The position numbers and the translations under genes are program-made. A stretch of DNA of 64,000 nt, taken from an uncultured Dehalococcoidia bacterium (GTDB lineage: Bacteria > Chloroflexota > Dehalococcoidia > Lucifugimonadales > GCA-2712585). The notes beneath the pieces are model-generated. The model searched no databases, had not been told where the DNA came from, and saw nothing but the letters and a program-made list of their open reading frames with translations. Location of the stretch: positions 1,845,697 to 1,909,696 of the forward strand of contig OY282371.1 of the NCBI GenBank assembly GCA_958295715.1, given 5' to 3'. Positions 23,980-53,675 of this stretch are shown one piece after another (the stretch's first letter is position 1; every line of letters begins with the position of its first letter).

Positions 23980-25689
23980 TCAGTCTACGGTGAGCAGATA
24001 ACCTCCAATACCTTTCCAGGATGGGTCAAAAGCCGCAACGAAGAAGCTGCCGCTGTGAGGGGCTTCGTAGCTCAGCCGCGCATCCATACCAAAGATTCCA
24101 CCTCCACTATCATCATCATCAAAGACCCCGTCCCCCGAGGGACTGAAATAGCCAACTACAACGTAGGAATCTATGGTCGCAGACTCCATGGAGATTTCAA
24201 TGGTCTCACCCTCTTCAAGATCAATGATATAGTGGTCAGCATCTCTCGGAAAATCCATTGCCCCCGTAATGGTCTGCCCACGGGTGAGTCTTCTGCCATC
24301 GTCTACGTCCGTGTACCTGGTAAGGGCGACGTTAGCCTCCAGTTCAATAAAACCCGGCCACCAGACGTGCCGCCGGAGTATTAGAAACATCGGCGCTTCG
24401 AACTCGACGGTAAAGGAACCGGATTCAACCCCGGTGTGACCCTCATCCATATAAATGGCCAATTCGCCGTAAATGTCGACGACCCGGAAAGACATATTTT
24501 CAGCACTGTCTGCCGTGATGTTTACCACGGTTCCGGCAGGTTCATTGATTACGTACATCTTGGTATCCCAAAAGTGATCCATCGAGAAGTTGTGGGCTTT
24601 TATAGGATTTTCTAGGCCTTCCAAGGACACCCTACGGTCAGAAGGCCCAGGGGTTCCTCCGTCGATTAACGCCTGGACCCGGGCGCTAATGTCAGAAGCA
24701 GATATACTAACTCCATAATCGGCCTCGGTGAATGAGTACGAAGAGATTCCGATGACGTCTCCTTCCATAGAGACCAGAGCACCTCCGCTTTGGCCGCCTG
24801 CAATGGGGTTGTCAGTCTGTAAGTATGTAATGCCAGCCGACTCCCACTGCCTAAGCCGTGAGAATAATCCTCGGACTATAGAGGGTTGAGGCTGATCGGA
24901 GACCTCACCGGGATAGCCAATGAGTAAGAATTCACTTCCAATGGGCATATCCTCCCCACTCTGAAAACTTAGCGGTTCAAGAGAGGTCTGCAACGGGCCT
25001 AGAACAGCTATATCAGCAAGAAGGTCAATATGGGCCACCGGCGCGTTCTCATGCTCCGAGCCGTCCGGGAACGTCACTTTAGCCGTAGAGTAAGGCCACA
25101 CAACGTGGGCATTGGTAATCACGTATCCGCCTTCAAAAAGTAGTCCGCTTCCGACGGAGACTTGCGTTTCTACAAAAGCGATTGAAGGCGAAACACGGCT
25201 AAATATCTGGGCTACCGTTGGCGGACTGGGCGTTGGTGTGGGAGTCGGGATGGCTGTAGGACTTGGCACAGGGGTTGGAGTTGGCGTCGGGGTTGGGGTT
25301 GGTGTGGGAGTCGGGGTCGGTGTGGCCGTTGGCGTTGGCACAGGGGTCGGGGTAGGAGTTGGCGTCGGCGTGGCCGTTGGCGTTGGCACAGGGGTTGGCG
25401 TGGCTGTTGGCACAGAGGTTGGAGTTGGAGTCGGGGTGGCTGTAGGTGAGAGCGTTGGCCGCGGCGTTGCAGTGGGATGGCGTGTCGGTGTGGGGGTTGC
25501 TGTAGGGCTAGGCGTGGGCGCCGGGGTTTGGGTAGGTGTGGCTATGGGCGTCGGTATGGGGGTGGCCTCAGCGACAGGTTGCGGGGTTATTGGTTGGGGC
25601 GTCGTGGCGGTCTGCCCGCCGGAGCCTCCACAGGCCGCCAGGACGGCCAGCGCTAGGATGGTGACGATGATAAGGGCCTTGACTCTCAC
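23980..25689 (-). CDS. Secreted trypsin-like serine protease lipoprotein with long Thr/Pro linker
   Basis: A 569-residue exported protein. The signal peptide ends in the lipobox VLAAC with Cys20. A low-complexity Thr/Pro/Ala linker of about 130 residues follows. The protease domain has His in VITNAHVV, Asp in LADIAVLG and Ser in [10 protein letters not shown], a complete S1C/DegP-like triad. No PDZ domain is seen. The C-terminal 200 residues resemble pre-peptidase C-terminal beta domains ([16 protein letters not shown]). The linker-coding DNA is highly repetitive; the rest has clearly lower GC than its neighbours (26 of 60 bases in a sampled line), which suggests transfer. It probably cleaves proteins at the cell surface. 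Confidence 0.87.
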
Positions 25690-42287: not shown

Positions 42288-42677
42288 TCAGGGGTGGTAT
42301 CTTAGGGTCCCCTTTGGACGACGCGTCAGGCGTTGGTCGACCGGGTCTATCGTCACGTCAAAAAATTCCAAAGCCGTCGCTCCCAGCATGTATCCCCCCT
42401 CATCATCGCCAAAGACAACCGGGCACGGCAACTCAAGCCCCTCAATCCCGCCCTTAACCCCATCGATAGCGATTAGGGCTATTCCGCGCCCGTATTCCCG
42501 TTGGCTGCCGTCGGCAAGCGTGTAAATGCCCCGGTAAAGGGGCTGTATTCCCAGTCCCTCCAAGAACGAAGCGGGCATCACCGAGTCCGCCGCGCCCGTA
42601 TCGACCACAGCCAGCGCCGGGGCCGTGGCGCCGCCGTCACGGGCTCCGACTCTGACGTTCACACTGAAAAGACCCAT
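42288..42677 (-). CDS. Retropepsin-like aspartyl protease domain protein
   Basis: A 129-residue protein with one clan AA aspartyl protease domain. The catalytic motif is Asp26-Thr-Gly-Ala (AVVDTGAADSVMP), followed by the flap region YTLADGSQREYGRG and the second hydrophobic-Gly word MLGATALEFF. Retropepsins work as dimers, each chain giving one Asp. No signal peptide or membrane anchor is present. The ATG at 42677 has AGGAAGG upstream. Its substrate and relation to neighbours are unknown; such small orphan proteases are common in bacterial genomes. Confidence 0.82.
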   Translation of the reverse strand: MGLFSVNVRVGARDGGATAPALAVVDTGAADSVMPASFLEGLGIQPLYRGIYTLADGSQREYGRGIALIAIDGVKGGIEGLELPCPVVFGDDEGGYMLGATALEFFDVTIDPVDQRLTRRPKGTLRYHP

Positions 42678-42796
42678 GACGTCACCTTCCTGAGCTTGAT
42701 GGGTCAAGCATACCAAGGACTGCGACGCGGGCGCAAGAAGGCCGCGCGGCTCCCAACGCCGGGGGATTTCCCGCGCCCACTGGCCGCCGCCGTCAA

Positions 42797-42906: not shown

Positions 42907-43737
42907 CTAGTCGCCGGGTCTGGTCCTCTCCTCGGCGAAGGGGGCCTTGATGACCACCTTCACGCCCTTGACGGTTCCCGTAAGGGAGTTCCGGACCGTT
43001 CTTCCCGCGGCGTCTCCTATCTCGGTGGCGGCGGATATGGCCCCCGTGGCGGCGGCGGACGCGGCGTCCTCGGCTTTAACGCCAATGGACTTGGCCCCGT
43101 CGATGGCGCCCTCCACCGTGGCTAAAGCCACGCCGCCCAGGTCGCCTCCCACCTCGGCCGTCCCCTTAATGAGGCCCCGGCTGGTGTCGGTAATGGTCGC
43201 CATCACGTCCCCGCCTATCTCCTTGGCCCCCGTGGCGGTGCCCGTGACAACGGACTTGGCCGTGCTGCCGAGGTCGCCGCCCACCTCGCTGACGCCCTTT
43301 ATCGCTCCCCGGCCAACGCTGGTGGCGGCGTCTTCCAGGCTCAGGGTCACGTCCTTGGTCACGGAGATGACGCCCTCCGCGGCTCCGCGGCCCGCCTGGG
43401 TCACGTCGCCGCCCACCTCGCTGGTGCCCTTAATGGCGGCCCGAACGGTGTCGCTTATCGTGCCGGCGGTTACGGTGGTTATCTCACCCACGCCCTGAAT
43501 GGTGCCTATAACGGCGCCCTTGGCCGACGAGGTCACGTCGGAGCCGGCCTCTATGGCCCCTTGCACCACTCCCGCCACAAGCCCGGTGGCCTCGGTTCCC
43601 ACGTCCTTCACGCCCCGCAGGGCCTTCACCGTGTTCTCGCGGGTGGCCTCTATGGTCGTTCCCAAAACATCGCCCGCGCCCTTGATGGTGTCCACCAAGG
43701 TCCTCTTAACTACGTTCCCAATCTCTCCCAGGGCCAT
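42907..43737 (-). CDS. Protein of nine 22-residue repeats (unknown, synuclein/LEA-like pattern)
   Basis: A 276-residue Gly/Ala/Thr/Val-rich protein, not recognised as any named family. From residue 63 to 239 an acidic word recurs every 22 residues: E63, E85, E107, D129, E151, E173, E195, then a degenerate unit at 217, then E239. Four units read EVGGD or EIGGD. Spacing is exact, with no indels. Repeats of 11 or 22 residues mark amphipathic-helix proteins that coat membranes or lipid droplets, or protect in desiccation. There is no signal peptide or Cys. AAGGAGG precedes the ATG and a TATAAT lies upstream. The function is unknown; a surface-active structural role is my inference. Confidence 0.75.
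   Translation of the reverse strand: MALGEIGNVVKRTLVDTIKGAGDVLGTTIEATRENTVKALRGVKDVGTEATGLVAGVVQGAIEAGSDVTSSAKGAVIGTIQGVGEITTVTAGTISDTVRAAIKGTSEVGGDVTQAGRGAAEGVISVTKDVTLSLEDAATSVGRGAIKGVSEVGGDLGSTAKSVVTGTATGAKEIGGDVMATITDTSRGLIKGTAEVGGDLGGVALATVEGAIDGAKSIGVKAEDAASAAATGAISAATEIGDAAGRTVRNSLTGTVKGVKVVIKAPFAEERTRPGD
42988..43584 (-). repeat. 66-bp coding repeat array
   Basis: This DNA encodes the nine 22-residue units (residues about 52-250). The period is 66 bases in frame. DNA identity between units is moderate, so the array is old and kept at the protein level. Confidence 0.7.
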
Positions 43738-43887: not shown

Positions 43888-44361
43888 TCAAGCATAAAAC
43901 CCTTTTGTCAGCTCATCACCGCATCTTATCAAACGAACGACTTCATGCTTCCCTTGAAACCTGATCATGTTGCTTTTTCGCTTCAGTTCGTCCAGTTCCG
44001 CTCTATGTATGCCTCCGCCATATGCGGCAATGGGGCGAAACTTCACTTTTATTCCCTGGGGCACGAGTCTCTCCGCGACACGGGATCCGGCTTTAATCTG
44101 TCTCACAAATTGGCCGGCATGGAATTTGCCTTTCTTAAGTTCCACGGGAGCAACCCAACCGTCATCGCCTCTCTCGGCTATGAATAAGTAATCACAGCGT
44201 AACTGAGGCGCTCTTAGCGGCGATCCCGGTTTGTCGAAATCAATGATTAGCCTTGATGGGGGAGCGTCTTTCAAGACAATCTCGCACCCTTCTTTCTTGA
44301 TGGTTCTTACGATACAGGTTTTATTTACGCTCCTACGAGTCCCCTCCACCAGCCCCTGCAT
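43888..44361 (-). CDS. Small PD-(D/E)XK nuclease-like protein, partner of the ATPase
   Basis: A 157-residue basic protein. RCDYLFIA (Asp57) followed by VAPVELKKGKF (Glu74, Lys76) has the order and strand pattern of the PD-(D/E)XK nuclease core, D...ExK, with HAGQFVRQI after it where the conserved Gln-bearing helix is expected. I do not recognise a named family. The ATG overlaps the ATPase stop by one base (TGATG), so the two are translationally coupled. Codon use and GC are low, as in the ATPase gene and unlike the neighbours. A DNA- or RNA-cleaving effector controlled by the ATPase is inferred, not shown. Confidence 0.65.
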   Translation of the reverse strand: MQGLVEGTRRSVNKTCIVRTIKKEGCEIVLKDAPPSRLIIDFDKPGSPLRAPQLRCDYLFIAERGDDGWVAPVELKKGKFHAGQFVRQIKAGSRVAERLVPQGIKVKFRPIAAYGGGIHRAELDELKRKSNMIRFQGKHEVVRLIRCGDELTKGFYA

Positions 44362-45935
44362 CAGTTCTCTCCGGTTCGGCTGGAAATCTCGGCCCAGTTA
44401 TTATGGAGAGCCACGGCTACATCGTTGAACCCGGACGGATATAGGCCGGAGTCATCAAGAGCAACTTCCCTCACGGTTGAACCCTTGGGCCTCGCCTTGG
44501 GAATAAACAGCCATGCTCCCACCTGGTCGGGACGGAGGGCCACGTCACTTCCTGGAATCCCCTTTCGCCGAGCTTCAGGAATCTGGGACAACCTCACAAG
44601 GTTGGCCAGTTCCTCAAGCAACCACTCACTGTGGGTCGTGACTATCACCCTAATGCCTGCGCGAACCATCGCAGCGATTTGGCGGGTAAATTCCACCTGC
44701 ATACCCGGATGCAAATGAGACTCAGGCTCTTCGATTATCAGAACATCGCCAGGTAGCACTAGATTACGCAGAAACAGGGCAACAGGGGCCAGTTCAGAAA
44801 CCATTGAAGACGCGCGCGTCAATGGCAAGTCTTCATTCCACCCATCCGGGCGGTAGGCGAACCTGGGGTAACCCGTCTCGGTCCGGTCCAATCGAACGGC
44901 GCCCTTCAAAATTCTGCTCTCCAAGCGTTCAGACAAGTCATTGTCATCGGTTGAGCCTTGGCGGGAACGCCGCCGCCTTCTAACTGTGCTCCTTTCACTC
45001 ATTTCAATCAACTGCCTCAAGAAGTCCGCAAGCACCCCGGACAGTATCGGTGTATTGGCTGAAGGTCTAATTCCGGCGGTCGTGGCCCCCTCGACCAGGG
45101 CGCTTACCACTACCTGGTGGCTGTGCATGACCCCTGTCCGGTCCGCTGGCAGGTAGTACGCTTCGCGATATAGGGGCTTATGCAGGGTCTTGAATATCTC
45201 GATAACCATACTAGTAAATATCATCCCGAGTTCGAGGCCTTCAAAGTCGGTGATACGTCGGGATAATCTCAGGTTTTCAAGAAATAGCGATAAGTAGTTC
45301 CGATTGTCCGGTAACTTTATCTCCTTGGAAAGAGACTGAACCCCGCCAATCTCTCCTGATGAAATAATCCCCTTCCTACCCCTCCGTACTTCAAATCCAT
45401 ATCTCATCGTTCCTTCTACAGCCTTCCGAGGAACGTGAATGTTTATTTTTGCTGCGCGTATAGGGGAGTTTCGGCGTCGTATCAACTTGCTCAGGTCATC
45501 CGTGCCAAAGCACCGGCCAATTTCATCTTCCAAAAAGAGATTCGCGCCCTCGGGGTGTTCAAGGATAGAGCGCACATATGAACTCACGTCCTCCGGCAGC
45601 GGAGGCTCGGATCCCGTTTCAAACTCCTGAACAAGCCAGTCCTTAAACTTCTCAAGCACAAAGGAGGCCCGCTCATTGCCCATCAAAAACCGGGTAACCA
45701 TTGACTCCAATGGTTCGATAAGTGGCCGCCTGTATGTAGAAATCTCCCCGCTGTCAAAACACTGATGCAGCGCATATATCAGTATTGCAAGGTAGGACTT
45801 TCCGGTATTGCTGGGGCCTATGAACACCGTCAGTGGTCGCATATCCACGCTGGCCTCTCTAATAGGCCCAAAGTTTTCTACGCTTATGCGGTACTCTCCG
45901 GTGAACTGTTGAGTCGGCGCTTCCTGGTTCCTCAT
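44361..45935 (-). CDS. AAA/ABC-type ATPase of the OLD-like (AAA_15/AAA_21) group
   Basis: A 524-residue SMC/RecF-like ATPase. Walker A is GPSNTGKS (40-47), a conserved YYLPADRTG follows near 260, a signature-like SSMVSELAPVALF lies near 376, Walker B is VLIIEEPESHLHPG (398-411) and the switch His is His435 in VIVTTHSEWLLEEL. No TOPRIM domain is fused, unlike OLD or GajA. Start 45935 is chosen over 45962 because GGAGG lies five bases before it. GC is near 48 percent in a sampled line, against 75 percent in a line of the Ldh-family gene. Such ATPases act in anti-phage systems as sensors or assembly platforms. Confidence 0.82.
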   Translation of the reverse strand: MRNQEAPTQQFTGEYRISVENFGPIREASVDMRPLTVFIGPSNTGKSYLAILIYALHQCFDSGEISTYRRPLIEPLESMVTRFLMGNERASFVLEKFKDWLVQEFETGSEPPLPEDVSSYVRSILEHPEGANLFLEDEIGRCFGTDDLSKLIRRRNSPIRAAKINIHVPRKAVEGTMRYGFEVRRGRKGIISSGEIGGVQSLSKEIKLPDNRNYLSLFLENLRLSRRITDFEGLELGMIFTSMVIEIFKTLHKPLYREAYYLPADRTGVMHSHQVVVSALVEGATTAGIRPSANTPILSGVLADFLRQLIEMSERSTVRRRRRSRQGSTDDNDLSERLESRILKGAVRLDRTETGYPRFAYRPDGWNEDLPLTRASSMVSELAPVALFLRNLVLPGDVLIIEEPESHLHPGMQVEFTRQIAAMVRAGIRVIVTTHSEWLLEELANLVRLSQIPEARRKGIPGSDVALRPDQVGAWLFIPKARPKGSTVREVALDDSGLYPSGFNDVAVALHNNWAEISSRTGEN

Positions 45936-45953
45936 AAATGCCTCCAAGGTCTC

Positions 45954-45959
45954 ATTATA
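45954..45959 (-). promoter_or_regulatory. -10 box candidate for the ATPase-nuclease pair
   Basis: A perfect TATAAT on the minus strand lies 18 bases before the chosen start codon, so the leader would be very short and barely contain the GGAGG. A TTGACC lies 20 bases further upstream, wider than usual. The assignment is weak. Confidence 0.35.
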
Positions 45960-46064
45960 CATTATGGATGGAAGACCAAGGTCAAGGCAGGGCTAAGGAT
46001 AGGCCGCCTCTCGCGGGGATGCCGGGCGGCATTCCGGCTTATGAAATGGCGCGCCGGTATGTTG

Positions 46065-51209: not shown

Positions 51210-51242
51210 TAGGTTCATCTCAGGCAGAGTTGGAGGCTATTG

Positions 51243-53675
51243 ATGCGAAGGACGGGCAAGGGGCTTTTTCTGCTACTCATCACCGCCATTGGCGCCCTTT
51301 TGGCGGCCGTGGCCTGCGGCGATTCCCTGACTCCACTACCGCCCAAGTCCGACCCCGCCGCCTTCACCAAGGCCTTCGTTCAGCAGGCTATCGACCGCTA
51401 CGATAGGGACGGCAGGGCCGACACCATCGACTACTACAACACCACGGAGAGCATGGACGGCCAATGGTACGTCTTCATCATTGACGAGGCCGAAATCCTG
51501 GTCTCTCACCCCACCATGCCAGAGTTGCGCGGCACGAATGGCCGGGAGACTCGCGGCCCGGACGGCTTCCCCGTCGGACTTCTGAACCTGTCCGTGGCCA
51601 ACGAGAATGGGGCATGGAGTTCCTACGTGTTCAACAGCCCCGGCTCCGGCGCGCCTGAGTTTAAGCGCTCCTGGCTGGTGCGGCACGACGGCCTTCTATT
51701 CGGCTCCGGCTGGTACGAGCCCGCCCCCTCCAAGTCTGACCCCGCCGCCTACACTCAAGCCTTCGTGCAGAGGGCAGCGGACTTCTACGACGCCGTGGGC
51801 CGCGGTCCCACCCTCGAATACTACAACAACCCTGAGAGCGTGGATGAAGAGTGGTACGTCTTCATCTCGGACCTAGCCGGCGATCTCGTCGCCCATGCAG
51901 CCTTCCCTGAGTACGTGGGCGACAACATCCTAGGGCCTCTGGGCACCGACTCCACCGGCTACGTCTTCGGCCCTCAGATACTCGCCGCCACCGAGGAGGG
52001 GGGATGGGTGGACTACGCCTTCCGCAACCCCACCACGGAACAGGAGGGAACCAAGCACTCCTGGGTGGTGAAGCGCGGAGACCTCATCTTCGGCGCCGGC
52101 TGGTACGAGCCCGGCCCCTCCAAGTCCGACCCCGCCGCCTACACCCAAGCCTTCGTTCAGCAGGCCATCGACCGCTACGAGAGGGACGGCAGGGCCGACA
52201 CCATCGACTACTACAACACCGCGGAGAGCGTGGACGGCCACTGGTACGTCTTCATCATCGATGAGGCCAACATCATCGTCTCCCACGCCACCATCCCCGA
52301 CCTGCGCGGCGTGGATGCCCGGAACGTTCGCGGCCAGAACAACTTCCCCATCGGCCTTCAGGGCCTTGCCAAGGCCAACGAGACTGGGGACTGGTACTCC
52401 TACGTGTTCACCAATCCCGGCTCCGGCGAGGTGGAGTTGAAGCACGTCTGGGGGAAGCGGCACGACGGCCTCATCTTCGGCTCCGGCTGGTACGAGCCAG
52501 CCCCCTCCAAGTCGGATCCCGCCGCCTACACTCAAGCCTTTGTTAAGCGGGCAACGGACTTTTACGACGCCGTGGGCCGCGATGTCACCCTCGACTACTA
52601 CAACACCCCGGAGAGCGTGGATGAAGAGTGGTACGTCTTCATCTTAGACCTGGATGGCGTTCTCGTGGCACAGCCGGCCTTCCCCGAGTACGTGGGCGAC
52701 AACATCCTGGGGCCTCTGGGCACAGACTCCACCGGCTACGTCTTCGGCCCTCAGATACTCGCCGCCACTGAGGAGGGGGGATGGGTGGACTACGCCTTCC
52801 GCAACCCCACCACGGAGCAGGAGGGAACCAAGCACTCCTGGGTCATCAAGCGCGGCGACCTCATCTTCGGCGCCGGCTGGTACGAGCCCGGCCCCTCCAA
52901 GTCCGACCCCGCCGCCTACACTCAAGCCTTCGTTCAGCAGGCCATAGACCGGTACGAGAGGGACGGCAGGACTGCCGCCATTGACTACTACAACACCACC
53001 GAGAGCGTGGACGGCCACTGGTACGTCTTCATCATCGATGAGGCCAACATCATCGTCTCCCACGCCACCATCCCCGACCTGCGCGGCGTGGACGCCCGGA
53101 ACGTCCGCGGCCAGAACAACTTCCCCATCGGCCTTCAGGGCCTTGCCAAGGCCAACGAGACTGGGGACTGGTACTCCTACGTGTTCACCAATCCCGGCTC
53201 CGGCGAGGTGGAGTTGAAGCACGTCTGGGGGAAGCGGCACGACGGCCTCATCTTCGGCTCCGGCTGGTACGAGCCCGCCCCCTCCAAGTCGGACCCCGCC
53301 GCCTACACTCAAGCCTTCGTCCAGAGGGCAGCGGACCTTTACGACGCCGTTGGCCGCGAGGTCACCCTCGACTACTACAACACCCCGGAGAGCGTGGATG
53401 AAGAGTGGTACGTCTTCATCTTGGACCTGGGCGGTGTGCTCGTCGCGCAGCCGGCCTTCCCCGAGTACGTGGGCGACAACATACTAGGGCCTCTGGGCAC
53501 CGACTCCACCGGCTACGTCTTCGGCCCTCAGATACTCGCCGCCACCGAGGAGGGGGGATGGGTGGACTACGCCTTCCGCAACCCCACCACGGAGCAGGAG
53601 GGAACCAAGCACTCCTGGGTCATCAAGCGCGGCGACCTCATCTTCGGCGCCGGCTGGTACGAGCCCGCCCCCTAG
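51243..53675 (+). CDS. Lipoprotein of six tandem Cache-like sensor domains
   Basis: About 810 residues: a signal peptide ending in the lipobox AAVAC (Cys25), then six Cache-type domains of about 130 residues in strict A-B-A-B-A-B order, and nothing else. Every unit has KSDPAA-YTQAFV, a wYvFI strand and the closing FG-GWYEP. Type A has IPDLRGVDARNVRG; type B has FPEYVGDNILGPLG. A and B pairs repeat every 259 residues (777 bases) and copies 2 and 3 are almost identical in DNA. Cache domains bind amino acids and other small ligands in receptors, but no membrane or output domain is present. GGAGG lies six bases before the ATG. It is divergent from livGFHM, so ligand capture for that importer is possible. 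Confidence 0.85.
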   Translation: MRRTGKGLFLLLITAIGALLAAVACGDSLTPLPPKSDPAAFTKAFVQQAIDRYDRDGRADTIDYYNTTESMDGQWYVFIIDEAEILVSHPTMPELRGTNGRETRGPDGFPVGLLNLSVANENGAWSSYVFNSPGSGAPEFKRSWLVRHDGLLFGSGWYEPAPSKSDPAAYTQAFVQRAADFYDAVGRGPTLEYYNNPESVDEEWYVFISDLAGDLVAHAAFPEYVGDNILGPLGTDSTGYVFGPQILAATEEGGWVDYAFRNPTTEQEGTKHSWVVKRGDLIFGAGWYEPGPSKSDPAAYTQAFVQQAIDRYERDGRADTIDYYNTAESVDGHWYVFIIDEANIIVSHATIPDLRGVDARNVRGQNNFPIGLQGLAKANETGDWYSYVFTNPGSGEVELKHVWGKRHDGLIFGSGWYEPAPSKSDPAAYTQAFVKRATDFYDAVGRDVTLDYYNTPESVDEEWYVFILDLDGVLVAQPAFPEYVGDNILGPLGTDSTGYVFGPQILAATEEGGWVDYAFRNPTTEQEGTKHSWVIKRGDLIFGAGWYEPGPSKSDPAAYTQAFVQQAIDRYERDGRTAAIDYYNTTESVDGHWYVFIIDEANIIVSHATIPDLRGVDARNVRGQNNFPIGLQGLAKANETGDWYSYVFTNPGSGEVELKHVWGKRHDGLIFGSGWYEPAPSKSDPAAYTQAFVQRAADLYDAVGREVTLDYYNTPESVDEEWYVFILDLGGVLVAQPAFPEYVGDNILGPLGTDSTGYVFGPQILAATEEGGWVDYAFRNPTTEQEGTKHSWVIKRGDLIFGAGWYEPAP
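52113..53672 (+). repeat. 777-bp near-identical tandem duplication within the Cache gene
   Basis: The A+B domain pair at about 52113-52889 is repeated at 52890-53666 with few substitutions; the first pair (about 51340-52110) is more diverged in its A half. Identity this high over nearly 800 bases shows recent unequal duplication and makes copy number prone to change or to mis-assembly. Confidence 0.8.

What the first reader, a model, noticed from the sequence alone, without database searches (positions are those of the whole stretch)
43888..45935. Two-gene low-GC cassette: AAA/OLD-like ATPase plus a small PD-(D/E)XK-like protein
Seen: an intact SMC/RecF-like ATPase (GPSNTGKS, IIEEPESHLHPG, THSEWLLEEL) whose TGA overlaps the ATG of a 157-residue protein (TGATG). 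The latter has Asp57...Glu74-x-Lys76 in strand contexts typical of PD-(D/E)XK nucleases. A sampled line of the ATPase gene has 29 of 60 G+C against 45 of 60 in the Ldh-family gene. Known: ATPases of this group pair with effectors in OLD, Gabija, PARIS and Septu anti-phage systems. Inference: this is a two-component defence system in which an ATPase controls a nuclease-like effector with a family I cannot name. It lies next to a repeat-array gene and a retropepsin-like gene in an accessory stretch.
Basis: partly seen in the sequence, partly recalled or inferred. Interest (0 to 1): 0.8.

Follow-up and report, generated by a model that had tools for sequence, protein, structure and literature searches.

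The report
Two-gene ATPase–nuclease anti-phage module
A pair of overlapping genes in an uncultured bacterium encodes an ATP-driven switch protein and a small nuclease-like protein that very probably act together as a defence against viruses, as a divergent cousin of systems already known from other bacteria.

Summary
A 533-aa OLD/SMC-type ATPase gene (45962..44361, minus) overlaps by one base a 157-aa gene (44361..43888); the pair is the lowest-GC 2-kb stretch of the window. The small protein models confidently (pLDDT 90.3); its structural neighbours are mostly PD-(D/E)XK nucleases, each match weak. Asp57 and Glu74 are invariant in 24 of 24 aligned rows, Lys76 in 19. The genes travel together: the ATPase lies directly upstream in 8 of 9 and 14 of 15 small-gene loci, and 5 of 5 near full-length ATPases have the small gene downstream. 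Profiles link the small protein to PD-T4-4_B-type partners (95.6%); the ATPases join PD-T4-4/PDC-M47 but form a separate group. In some relatives the pair lies inside an Hma operon or beside type IIG and BrxL genes. So it belongs to the OLD-ABC ATPase + PD-(D/E)XK modules that include PD-T4-4 and WonAB: a divergent branch of a known kind. Activity, target and trigger are untested; the window copy stands alone, outside any defence island.

The parts
44361..45962 (-). OLD-ABC/SMC-type ATPase, 533 aa (alternative second ATG at 45935); predicted sensor/regulator
   Evidence: ORF; Pfam AAA_15 2.2e-22, no TOPRIM among matches at E <= 1; PADLOC PD-T4-4_A 2.9e-34, PDC-M47A 1.2e-25; fold matches PtuA, OLD, GajA, SMC and Rad50 heads (model pLDDT only 64.3)
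45795..45818 (-). Walker A GPSNTGKS (residues 49-56, Lys55)
   Evidence: sequence; invariant in 8 of 8 rows, window included
44721..44741 (-). Walker B region LIIEEPE (residues 408-414, putative catalytic Glu412)
   Evidence: E412, P413, E414 invariant in 8 of 8 rows; catalytic role inferred
44628..44636 (-). H-loop THS (residues 443-445, His444)
   Evidence: invariant in 8 of 8 rows
44364..44618 (-). C-terminal extension after the H-loop (about residues 449-533), well conserved up to about residue 524; possible docking surface for the nuclease by analogy with WonA (inferred)
   Evidence: the PD-T4-4_A match runs to residue 514; docking is a published prediction for WonAB
44359..44363 (-). TGATG stop/start overlap of the two genes (translational coupling inferred)
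   Evidence: one- or four-base overlaps also in several relatives
43888..44361 (-). 157-aa PD-(D/E)XK-like protein, predicted nuclease effector
   Evidence: ORF; model pLDDT 90.3; fold neighbours mostly PD-(D/E)XK nucleases, all weak; profile match to PD-T4-4_B-type partners
44191..44193 (-). Asp57 of the Cys-Asp motif, just before strand 58-64
   Evidence: invariant in 24 of 24 rows; aligned with Asp89 of the partner in L049
44134..44142 (-). Glu74-x-Lys76 at the end of strand 67-76
   Evidence: Glu 24 of 24 rows, Lys 19 of 24; aligned with D-x-Lys108 of the partner in L049

Best explanation
A two-gene anti-phage module. The ATPase forms an ABC-type (OLD-like) dimer that detects infection and controls the small PD-(D/E)XK protein, probably by binding it. 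On infection the nuclease is switched on and cuts nucleic acid in the infected cell, stopping phage growth, probably at the cost of the cell (abortive infection). Shown here: the gene pair, conserved motifs, co-occurrence, homology to PD-T4-4-type pairs, and defence neighbourhoods in several (not all) relatives. Inferred by analogy with WonAB and PARIS: complex formation, ATPase gating, abortive outcome, and an RNA (tRNA or rRNA) rather than a DNA target.
For: Co-occurrence: ATPase directly upstream in 8 of 9 genome-contig loci and in 14 of 15 phylum matches; 5 of 5 near full-length ATPase matches among 60 genomes carry the small gene. Homology: hhalign of 24 small proteins to 6 PD-T4-4/PDC-M47-type partners gives 95.6%, E 1.3e-8, with the motif residues in register; the score of 56.9 compares with at most 16.5 in 100 column shuffles. 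ATPase tree: grouped with PD-T4-4/PDC-M47 apart from 6 other OLD-like ATPases (100/99). Fold; ATPase. Defence context: between hmaA and hmaB in L001; BrxL and type IIG neighbours in L072, type IIG in L071; an Eco57I-type gene within 5 kb of 7 of 18 cassettes against 0.52 expected, or 3 against 0.26 at one count per family. Tested relatives in print: PD-T4-4 came from a selection with T4; WonAB needs both genes, its ATPase motifs and nuclease Lys71, and stops translation.
Against: No PADLOC model names the window's small protein (best PDC-M47B, E 0.029). PADLOC hits of ATPases are not specific: the neighbouring transporter ATPases LivF and LivG hit mad3 at 2.3e-27 and 4.1e-24. Fold matches of the small protein are individually weak (best Z 7.0; no Foldseek E <= 0.001 in PDB or the viral library). 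Lys76 is S or T in 5 of 24 rows. Neighbours scanned in L002, L003, L006 and L078 gave no defence match, nor did 12 neighbours in the window apart from ABC-ATPase cross-matches. No activity, complex or phage protection was measured.
Confidence: 0.77

Rival explanations
1. A restriction-type system: the ATPase senses or moves on foreign DNA and the nuclease cuts the invading DNA directly, without killing the cell.
For: Many fold neighbours of the small protein are restriction or other DNA endonucleases. The pair sits beside methylase genes in several relatives.
Against: No methylase among 10 neighbours in the window, so host DNA would be unprotected unless the cut is gated by an infection signal. 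WonB, a nuclease of the same kind, left chromosomal DNA intact and stopped translation.
Confidence: 0.2
2. A backup layer tied to restriction-type systems (R-M, BREX, Hma): it fires when a phage disables the primary system, as PARIS does on sensing Ocr. This is a refinement of the best explanation rather than its opposite.
For: Location between hmaA and hmaB in the closest relative; type IIG or BrxL neighbours; the idea is in print for OLD-ABC + PD-(D/E)XK pairs in BREX and related loci.
Against: In the window the pair stands alone beside a branched-chain amino acid transporter. 11 of 18 cassettes had no Eco57I-type gene within 5 kb, some of them near contig ends. Five of the seven positives are one family, and the other two (L012, L013) are nearest neighbours in the tree, so independent events are few.
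Confidence: 0.3
3. A toxin-antitoxin or stability module in which the ATPase merely neutralises the nuclease.
For: Two overlapping genes, small effector-like protein, patchy distribution.
Against: An antitoxin with a complete ABC ATPase site would be unusual (recalled); in WonAB the overproduced nuclease is harmless without its ATPase, which argues against simple sequestration.
Confidence: 0.1
4. The window copy is a decaying remnant without function.
For: Broken or truncated copies occur in relatives (L007, L008, L009).
Against: Both window ORFs are full length with their motifs intact.
Confidence: 0.05

Closest known systems
PD-T4-4 (Vassallo et al. 2022, PMC9519451; PADLOC PD-T4-4_A/B)
   Same: Gene order ATPase then small protein; ATPase match reaching into the C-terminal extension; small proteins related by profile, with D, D/E-x-K and Q in register.
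   Different: The window's small protein is shorter (157 against 184-209 aa in the six partners looked at) and no PD-T4-4_B model hits it at E <= 1; the ATPase is longer (533 against 461-483 aa); separate group in the tree.
PDC-M47 (PADLOC candidate system)
   Same: ATPase match 1.2e-25; 5 of 24 small-protein rows match PDC-M47B at E <= 0.001.
   Different: The window's small protein reaches only E 0.029. The ATPase lies outside the PDC-M47 group, and genome G215 holds both a window-type pair and a PDC-M47-type pair (L041 and L048). The name was in 0 papers searched.
WonAB of Vibrio cholerae (PMC12137116)
   Same: OLD-ABC ATPase + PD-(D/E)xK protein; spacing of key residues is similar (WonA Glu300 to His333, here Glu412 to His444; WonB Lys71, here Lys76). 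This is weak evidence.
   Different: No WonAB sequence was at hand, so no direct comparison; different host; phage activity unknown here.
OLD-ABC ATPase + novel REase operons (cited in PMC12137116) and OLD-ABC + PD-(D/E)XK pairs in BREX and BREX-related loci (PMC12839542)
   Same: Same architecture and, in some relatives, the same setting: BrxL, and Hma, which that paper counts as a DUF499-centred BREX-related system.
   Different: Supplementary lists could not be read, so whether this branch is in them is unknown; 'chloroflex' does not occur in the main text of PMC12839542.
Gabija, PARIS, Septu, OLD
   Same: Same ATPase fold class.
   Different: No TOPRIM, helicase or HNH partner was detected; the partner models as PD-(D/E)XK-like.

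Membership tests
OLD-ABC ATPase + PD-(D/E)XK nuclease two-gene modules (broad kind) | OLD-like ABC ATPase without fused TOPRIM | tested here: met
   AAA_15 and AAA_21 over cut-off, no TOPRIM among matches at E <= 1; fold class of PtuA/OLD/GajA ATPase heads; only about 85 residues follow the H-loop
OLD-ABC ATPase + PD-(D/E)XK nuclease two-gene modules (broad kind) | Adjacent same-strand gene for a PD-(D/E)XK-type protein, conserved as a pair | tested here: met
   pairing; motif residues; fold support weak if taken alone
OLD-ABC ATPase + PD-(D/E)XK nuclease two-gene modules (broad kind) | Protects against phage; nuclease active site needed | not testable with these tools
   needs plaque assays
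PD-T4-4 | ATPase matches PD-T4-4_A over its length | tested here: inconclusive
   E 2.9e-34, two stretches, best 340-514 of 533, against full-length matches of 1.9e-99 to 2.2e-258 for L049 and L051-L053; LivF and LivG also reach 1e-24 to 1e-27 with another ATPase model
PD-T4-4 | Partner matches a PD-T4-4_B model | tested here: not met
   no hit at E <= 1 for the window protein; 0 of 24 rows at E <= 0.001; only distant profile homology
PDC-M47 | Partner matches a PDC-M47B model | tested here: inconclusive
   window 0.029; 5 of 24 rows at E <= 0.001, best 8.8e-8
WonAB | Sequence relation of both proteins to WonA and WonB | not tested
   no WonAB sequence was at hand; two viral-contig scans gave PD-T4-4-like pairs and other ATPases, none identified as WonAB
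WonAB | ATPase-dependent nuclease that stops translation | not testable with these tools
   published for WonAB
PD-(D/E)XK superfamily | Core element order with Asp and (D/E)-x-K at the central hairpin | tested here: met
   in the predicted model (pLDDT 90.3): strands 37-41, 58-64, 67-76, helix 82-99, strand 111-114; Asp57 just before strand 58-64, Glu74 and Lys76 at the end of strand 67-76. Lys76 is replaced in 5 of 24 rows
PD-(D/E)XK superfamily | Clear fold match to a solved member | tested here: inconclusive
   best Z 7.0, below the level at which a match stands out; no Foldseek E <= 0.001. Most rows are nucleases, classed as PD-(D/E)XK from recall
Gabija | TOPRIM on the ATPase and a UvrD-like helicase partner | tested here: not met
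   neither found in the two proteins or the neighbours scanned
PARIS | AriB TOPRIM/DUF4435 partner | tested here: not met
   no such Pfam or PADLOC match for the small protein; it models as another fold
Septu | HNH partner PtuB | tested here: not met
   no HNH match; it models as another fold

The most novel reading that the evidence does not exclude
A separate branch of OLD-ABC/PD-(D/E)XK modules, spread through the window's phylum (Chloroflexota by inference) and several other uncultured lineages, that works as a portable guard of restriction-type systems: it inserts into or beside R-M, BREX-related and Hma loci, fires when those are inhibited, and its compact nuclease cuts host RNA; a sub-branch with Ser/Thr in place of the catalytic Lys uses an altered active site.
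Probability: 0.22. Interest if true: 0.65.

Novelty: new variant of a known kind. Interest (0 to 1): 0.45.

Why it matters
PADLOC 2023, Pfam and NCBIfam give the small protein no name, so scans of such uncultured genomes would miss this module or report only a lone ATPase. The branch ties these genomes to the WonAB/PD-T4-4 group, whose trigger and nuclease target are open in the papers seen, and its natural place inside an Hma operon and beside type IIG genes makes the published 'backup effector' idea testable.

Tried and rejected
Gabija, PARIS and Septu membership: rejected on the partner protein. Housekeeping ATPase: rejected, as the distribution is patchy and the partner nearly constant. 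PD-T4-4 membership proper: rejected on the B models. Sequence search of solved structures gave nothing useful for the small protein, alone (best E 0.84) or as a profile (best E 1.2). Viral contigs held no relative of the small protein for the one pattern used and plasmids none at E <= 0.01; phage records were searched with the ATPase only, and E. coli genomes not at all. A PD-T4-4_B search in 20 related genomes found none, but nothing rang in the controls either, so it shows no absence.

Empty site: in G002 the Liv operon is conserved, but in blastn and in ORF-against-DNA comparison nothing between window 36001 and 46068 aligned to the 19.5 kb taken around it; a tblastx run with the filter off gave short scattered pieces, of which only five rows were printed. 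So the cassette lies at a synteny break, and no clean empty site could be drawn. No flanking repeats that would mark an insertion were found: only 12-13 nt direct repeats and two imperfect inverted repeats of 18 and 13 nt; ARAGORN found no tRNA in the window. Hunt for WonAB among viral contigs: not found. PADLOC hits of ATPases alone were not taken as proof, because LivF and LivG hit defence models too. The ATPase model is middling (pLDDT 64.3), so its fold matches are used only for the class.
Full report
What is there. On the minus strand, an ORF of 533 aa (45962..44361) is followed by one of 157 aa (44361..43888) with a one-base TGATG overlap. The genes have 52.7% and 49.6% GC, and GC3 of 58% and 51%, against a window mean of 65.1%; among 2074-bp stretches this is the lowest of the window. 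Twelve neighbours were scanned against PADLOC: the aspartic-protease-like and repeat genes, and YceI, amidase, alpha/beta hydrolase, BrkB-type, branched-chain amino acid ABC transporter and Cache-repeat genes. None is a defence gene; the hits of the two transporter ATPases are cross-matches. So here the cassette stands alone. The genome is an unnamed one of 2.4 Mb with one copy of the small gene. No call names its phylum; the closest named relative of the cassette is an uncultured Dehalococcoidia (Chloroflexota) MAG, so Chloroflexota is an inference.

The ATPase. Pfam gives AAA_15 (2.2e-22) and AAA_21, and no TOPRIM. PADLOC's best is PD-T4-4_A (2.9e-34, best stretch 340-514), then PDC-M47A, AriA and many others. 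Such hits alone prove little, since LivF next door hits mad3 at 2.3e-27. In 8 aligned rows (window and 7 relatives) Walker A, E412-P-E and TTHSEW are invariant and the C-terminal tail is well conserved. The model has pLDDT 64.3; its fold class is that of PtuA, OLD, GajA, SMC and Rad50 heads.

The small protein. Pfam and NCBIfam give no family. In 24 aligned rows (window and 23 homologs) six columns are invariant: Cys26, Cys56, Asp57, Glu74, Gln88 and Gly92. Position 76 is K in 19, S in 4 and T in 1. The AlphaFold2 model from 7 sequences has pLDDT 90.3 and the element order expected of PD-(D/E)XK cores. Foldseek gives no match at E <= 0.001; FokI, Bse634I and EcoO109I are near the top, mixed with unrelated proteins. 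The structural aligner gives Z 5.1-7.0 to Can2, the type III CRISPR nuclease 6sce, Card1, EndoMS, FokI and HamA, all below the level at which a match stands out, and also lists unrelated chains such as acetyl-CoA carboxylase and RNA polymerase subunits. Several herpesvirus UL24 proteins appear in the viral library, again weakly. I take the fold as likely, not as proved by structure search alone.

The pair is a unit. Of 9 loci in genome contigs, 8 have ATPase sequence directly upstream (in L007 only a broken 43-residue piece at a contig end); L009 is a remnant without it. Of 15 matches in 400 phylum genomes, 14 have it; the exception, L044, is a short match with stops. In the reverse direction, the 5 near full-length ATPase matches among 60 genomes are all followed by the small gene. 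These sets share the window genome and may share others, so they should not be summed.

Family. Distant ATPase relatives on an E. coli plasmid, an E. albertii plasmid, a Serratia plasmid (there a short ORF of about 233 aa), Bernardetia, a Vibrio phage and Annamia each have a 184-209 aa partner downstream. The six partners match PD-T4-4_B or PDC-M47B models, and the five ATPases scanned match PD-T4-4_A and PDC-M47A (the Serratia one was not scanned). hhalign of the 24 small proteins to the 6 partners gives 95.6%, E 1.3e-8, with Asp57, Glu74-x-Lys76 and Gln88 on the partners' D, D/E-x-K and Q. The score of 56.9 compares with at most 16.5 in 100 column shuffles and 10.3 for the reversed alignment. 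An ATPase tree of 39 rows puts the 23 window-family rows on one side of a 100/99 branch from PD-T4-4 and PDC-M47, and both together apart from six other OLD-like ATPases (100/99). It is midpoint-rooted, its inner forks are open and several long branches are unsure, so the family is a separate group but not shown to be a clade; L042 and L043, whose small proteins are in my alignment, fall on the PD-T4-4 side (92/85). Genome G215 holds both a window-type pair and a PDC-M47-type pair. By HMMER no PD-T4-4_B model hits the small protein, so I do not file it as PD-T4-4.

Context in relatives. In L001, the closest relative (58% for both proteins), the pair lies between hmaA and hmaB (1643.8 and 1064.4 bits), with hmaC and, on the other strand, a DruE-like gene beyond. 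In L072 it follows BrxL and a type IIG enzyme, in L071 a type IIG enzyme; in L074 a PDC-M72A/ankyrin-type gene is near; in L076 an Eco57I-type gene (PADLOC DrmMI/type IIG) and a Schlafen AlbA_2 gene. L005 has another OLD-like ATPase nearby. Neighbours scanned in L002, L003, L006 and L078 gave no defence match. Neighbours were chosen by size and nearness; not all were scanned. As a count, an Eco57I-type gene lies within 5 kb of 7 of 18 cassettes (G027, G038, G082, G128, G144, G207, G371) against 0.52 expected; one count per family gives 3 against 0.26, Poisson P about 0.0025. Five of the seven belong to one family, and the other two cassettes are nearest neighbours in the tree, so the truly independent events may be only two or three.

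Spread. The small gene was found in 15 of 400 phylum genomes, the window's own included, and in 8 of 19 genomes of one family. The ATPase gave no match in the two same-genus genomes searched, one 84% complete. Relatives in MAGs labelled Nitrospinota, Rhodothermales, Rhodobacteraceae and Gammaproteobacteria suggest horizontal transfer.

Mechanism, by analogy. PD-T4-4 was found in a selection of E. coli library clones with phage T4 (PMC9519451; passages and section 6 read); a review's table lists it with PF13175 and with a PD(D/E)XK nuclease (PMC10952713; passages read). WonAB (PMC12137116; section 7 and passages read) is a two-gene OLD-ABC ATPase + PD-(D/E)xK system. Both genes, the ATPase motifs and nuclease Lys71 are needed; overproduced WonB is toxic only when WonA is present; chromosomal DNA stays intact and translation stops, so the authors suggest rRNA or tRNA as the target. 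They describe it as close to OLD-ABC + novel REase operons and similar to PD-T4-4. A BREX survey (PMC12839542; passages read) reports OLD-ABC ATPases paired with PD-(D/E)XK nucleases in BREX and BREX-related loci, treats Hma as one of its DUF499-centred systems, and proposes a backup-effector role. The window module fits this picture. Complex, trigger, target and outcome remain inferred.

Novelty. The kind is known. This branch, with a shorter nuclease carrying Cys16 (23 of 24 rows) and Cys26 (24 of 24) and a longer ATPase, has no name in PADLOC 2023, Pfam or NCBIfam. Papers found: 'PD-T4-4' 3, 'PDC-M47' 0, 'WonAB' 2; further searches, seen as listings, are. Supplements could not be read, so the branch may be listed there.

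Noticed in passing
window 51240-53675 (+): 811-aa protein of six repeats of about 130 aa in two alternating types (read by eye); its only Pfam matches are Cache sensor domains (sCache_2 5.8e-40).
   Followed up: partly
window 42288-42716 (-): Clan AA aspartic-protease-like protein (TIGR03698 1.1e-6, below its cut-off) with several relatives in each of genomes G002 and G004 (4 and 5 matches).
   Followed up: partly
window 42907-43737 (-): 276-aa protein built of short Gly/Thr/Val-rich repeats, without any Pfam match at E <= 1.
   Followed up: no
window 23980-25689 (-): 569-aa lipoprotein-like ORF with a long Pro-Thr stretch followed by what looks by eye like a trypsin-like protease region, in a second low-GC stretch (52% at 24-25 kb).
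   Followed up: no
L006, L033, L034, L035, L038 (small gene): Lys76 replaced by Ser or Thr, with an Arg three residues further on, in 5 of 24 rows.
   Followed up: partly
L007, L008, L009: Broken or truncated copies of the small gene; L009 has no ATPase next to it.
   Followed up: partly
L005:8667-9797 (+): A second OLD-like ATPase (AAA_21 1e-22) shortly after the pair.
   Followed up: no
L078:7382-9373 and L079:8258-10252: A 664/665-aa gene directly downstream of the pair in two genomes of one family; in L078 it is a P-type ATPase, the L079 one was not scanned.
   Followed up: partly
L053 (Vibrio phage 1.202.O): A PD-T4-4-type pair between the repressor and integrase genes of a Peduoviridae phage.
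   Followed up: partly
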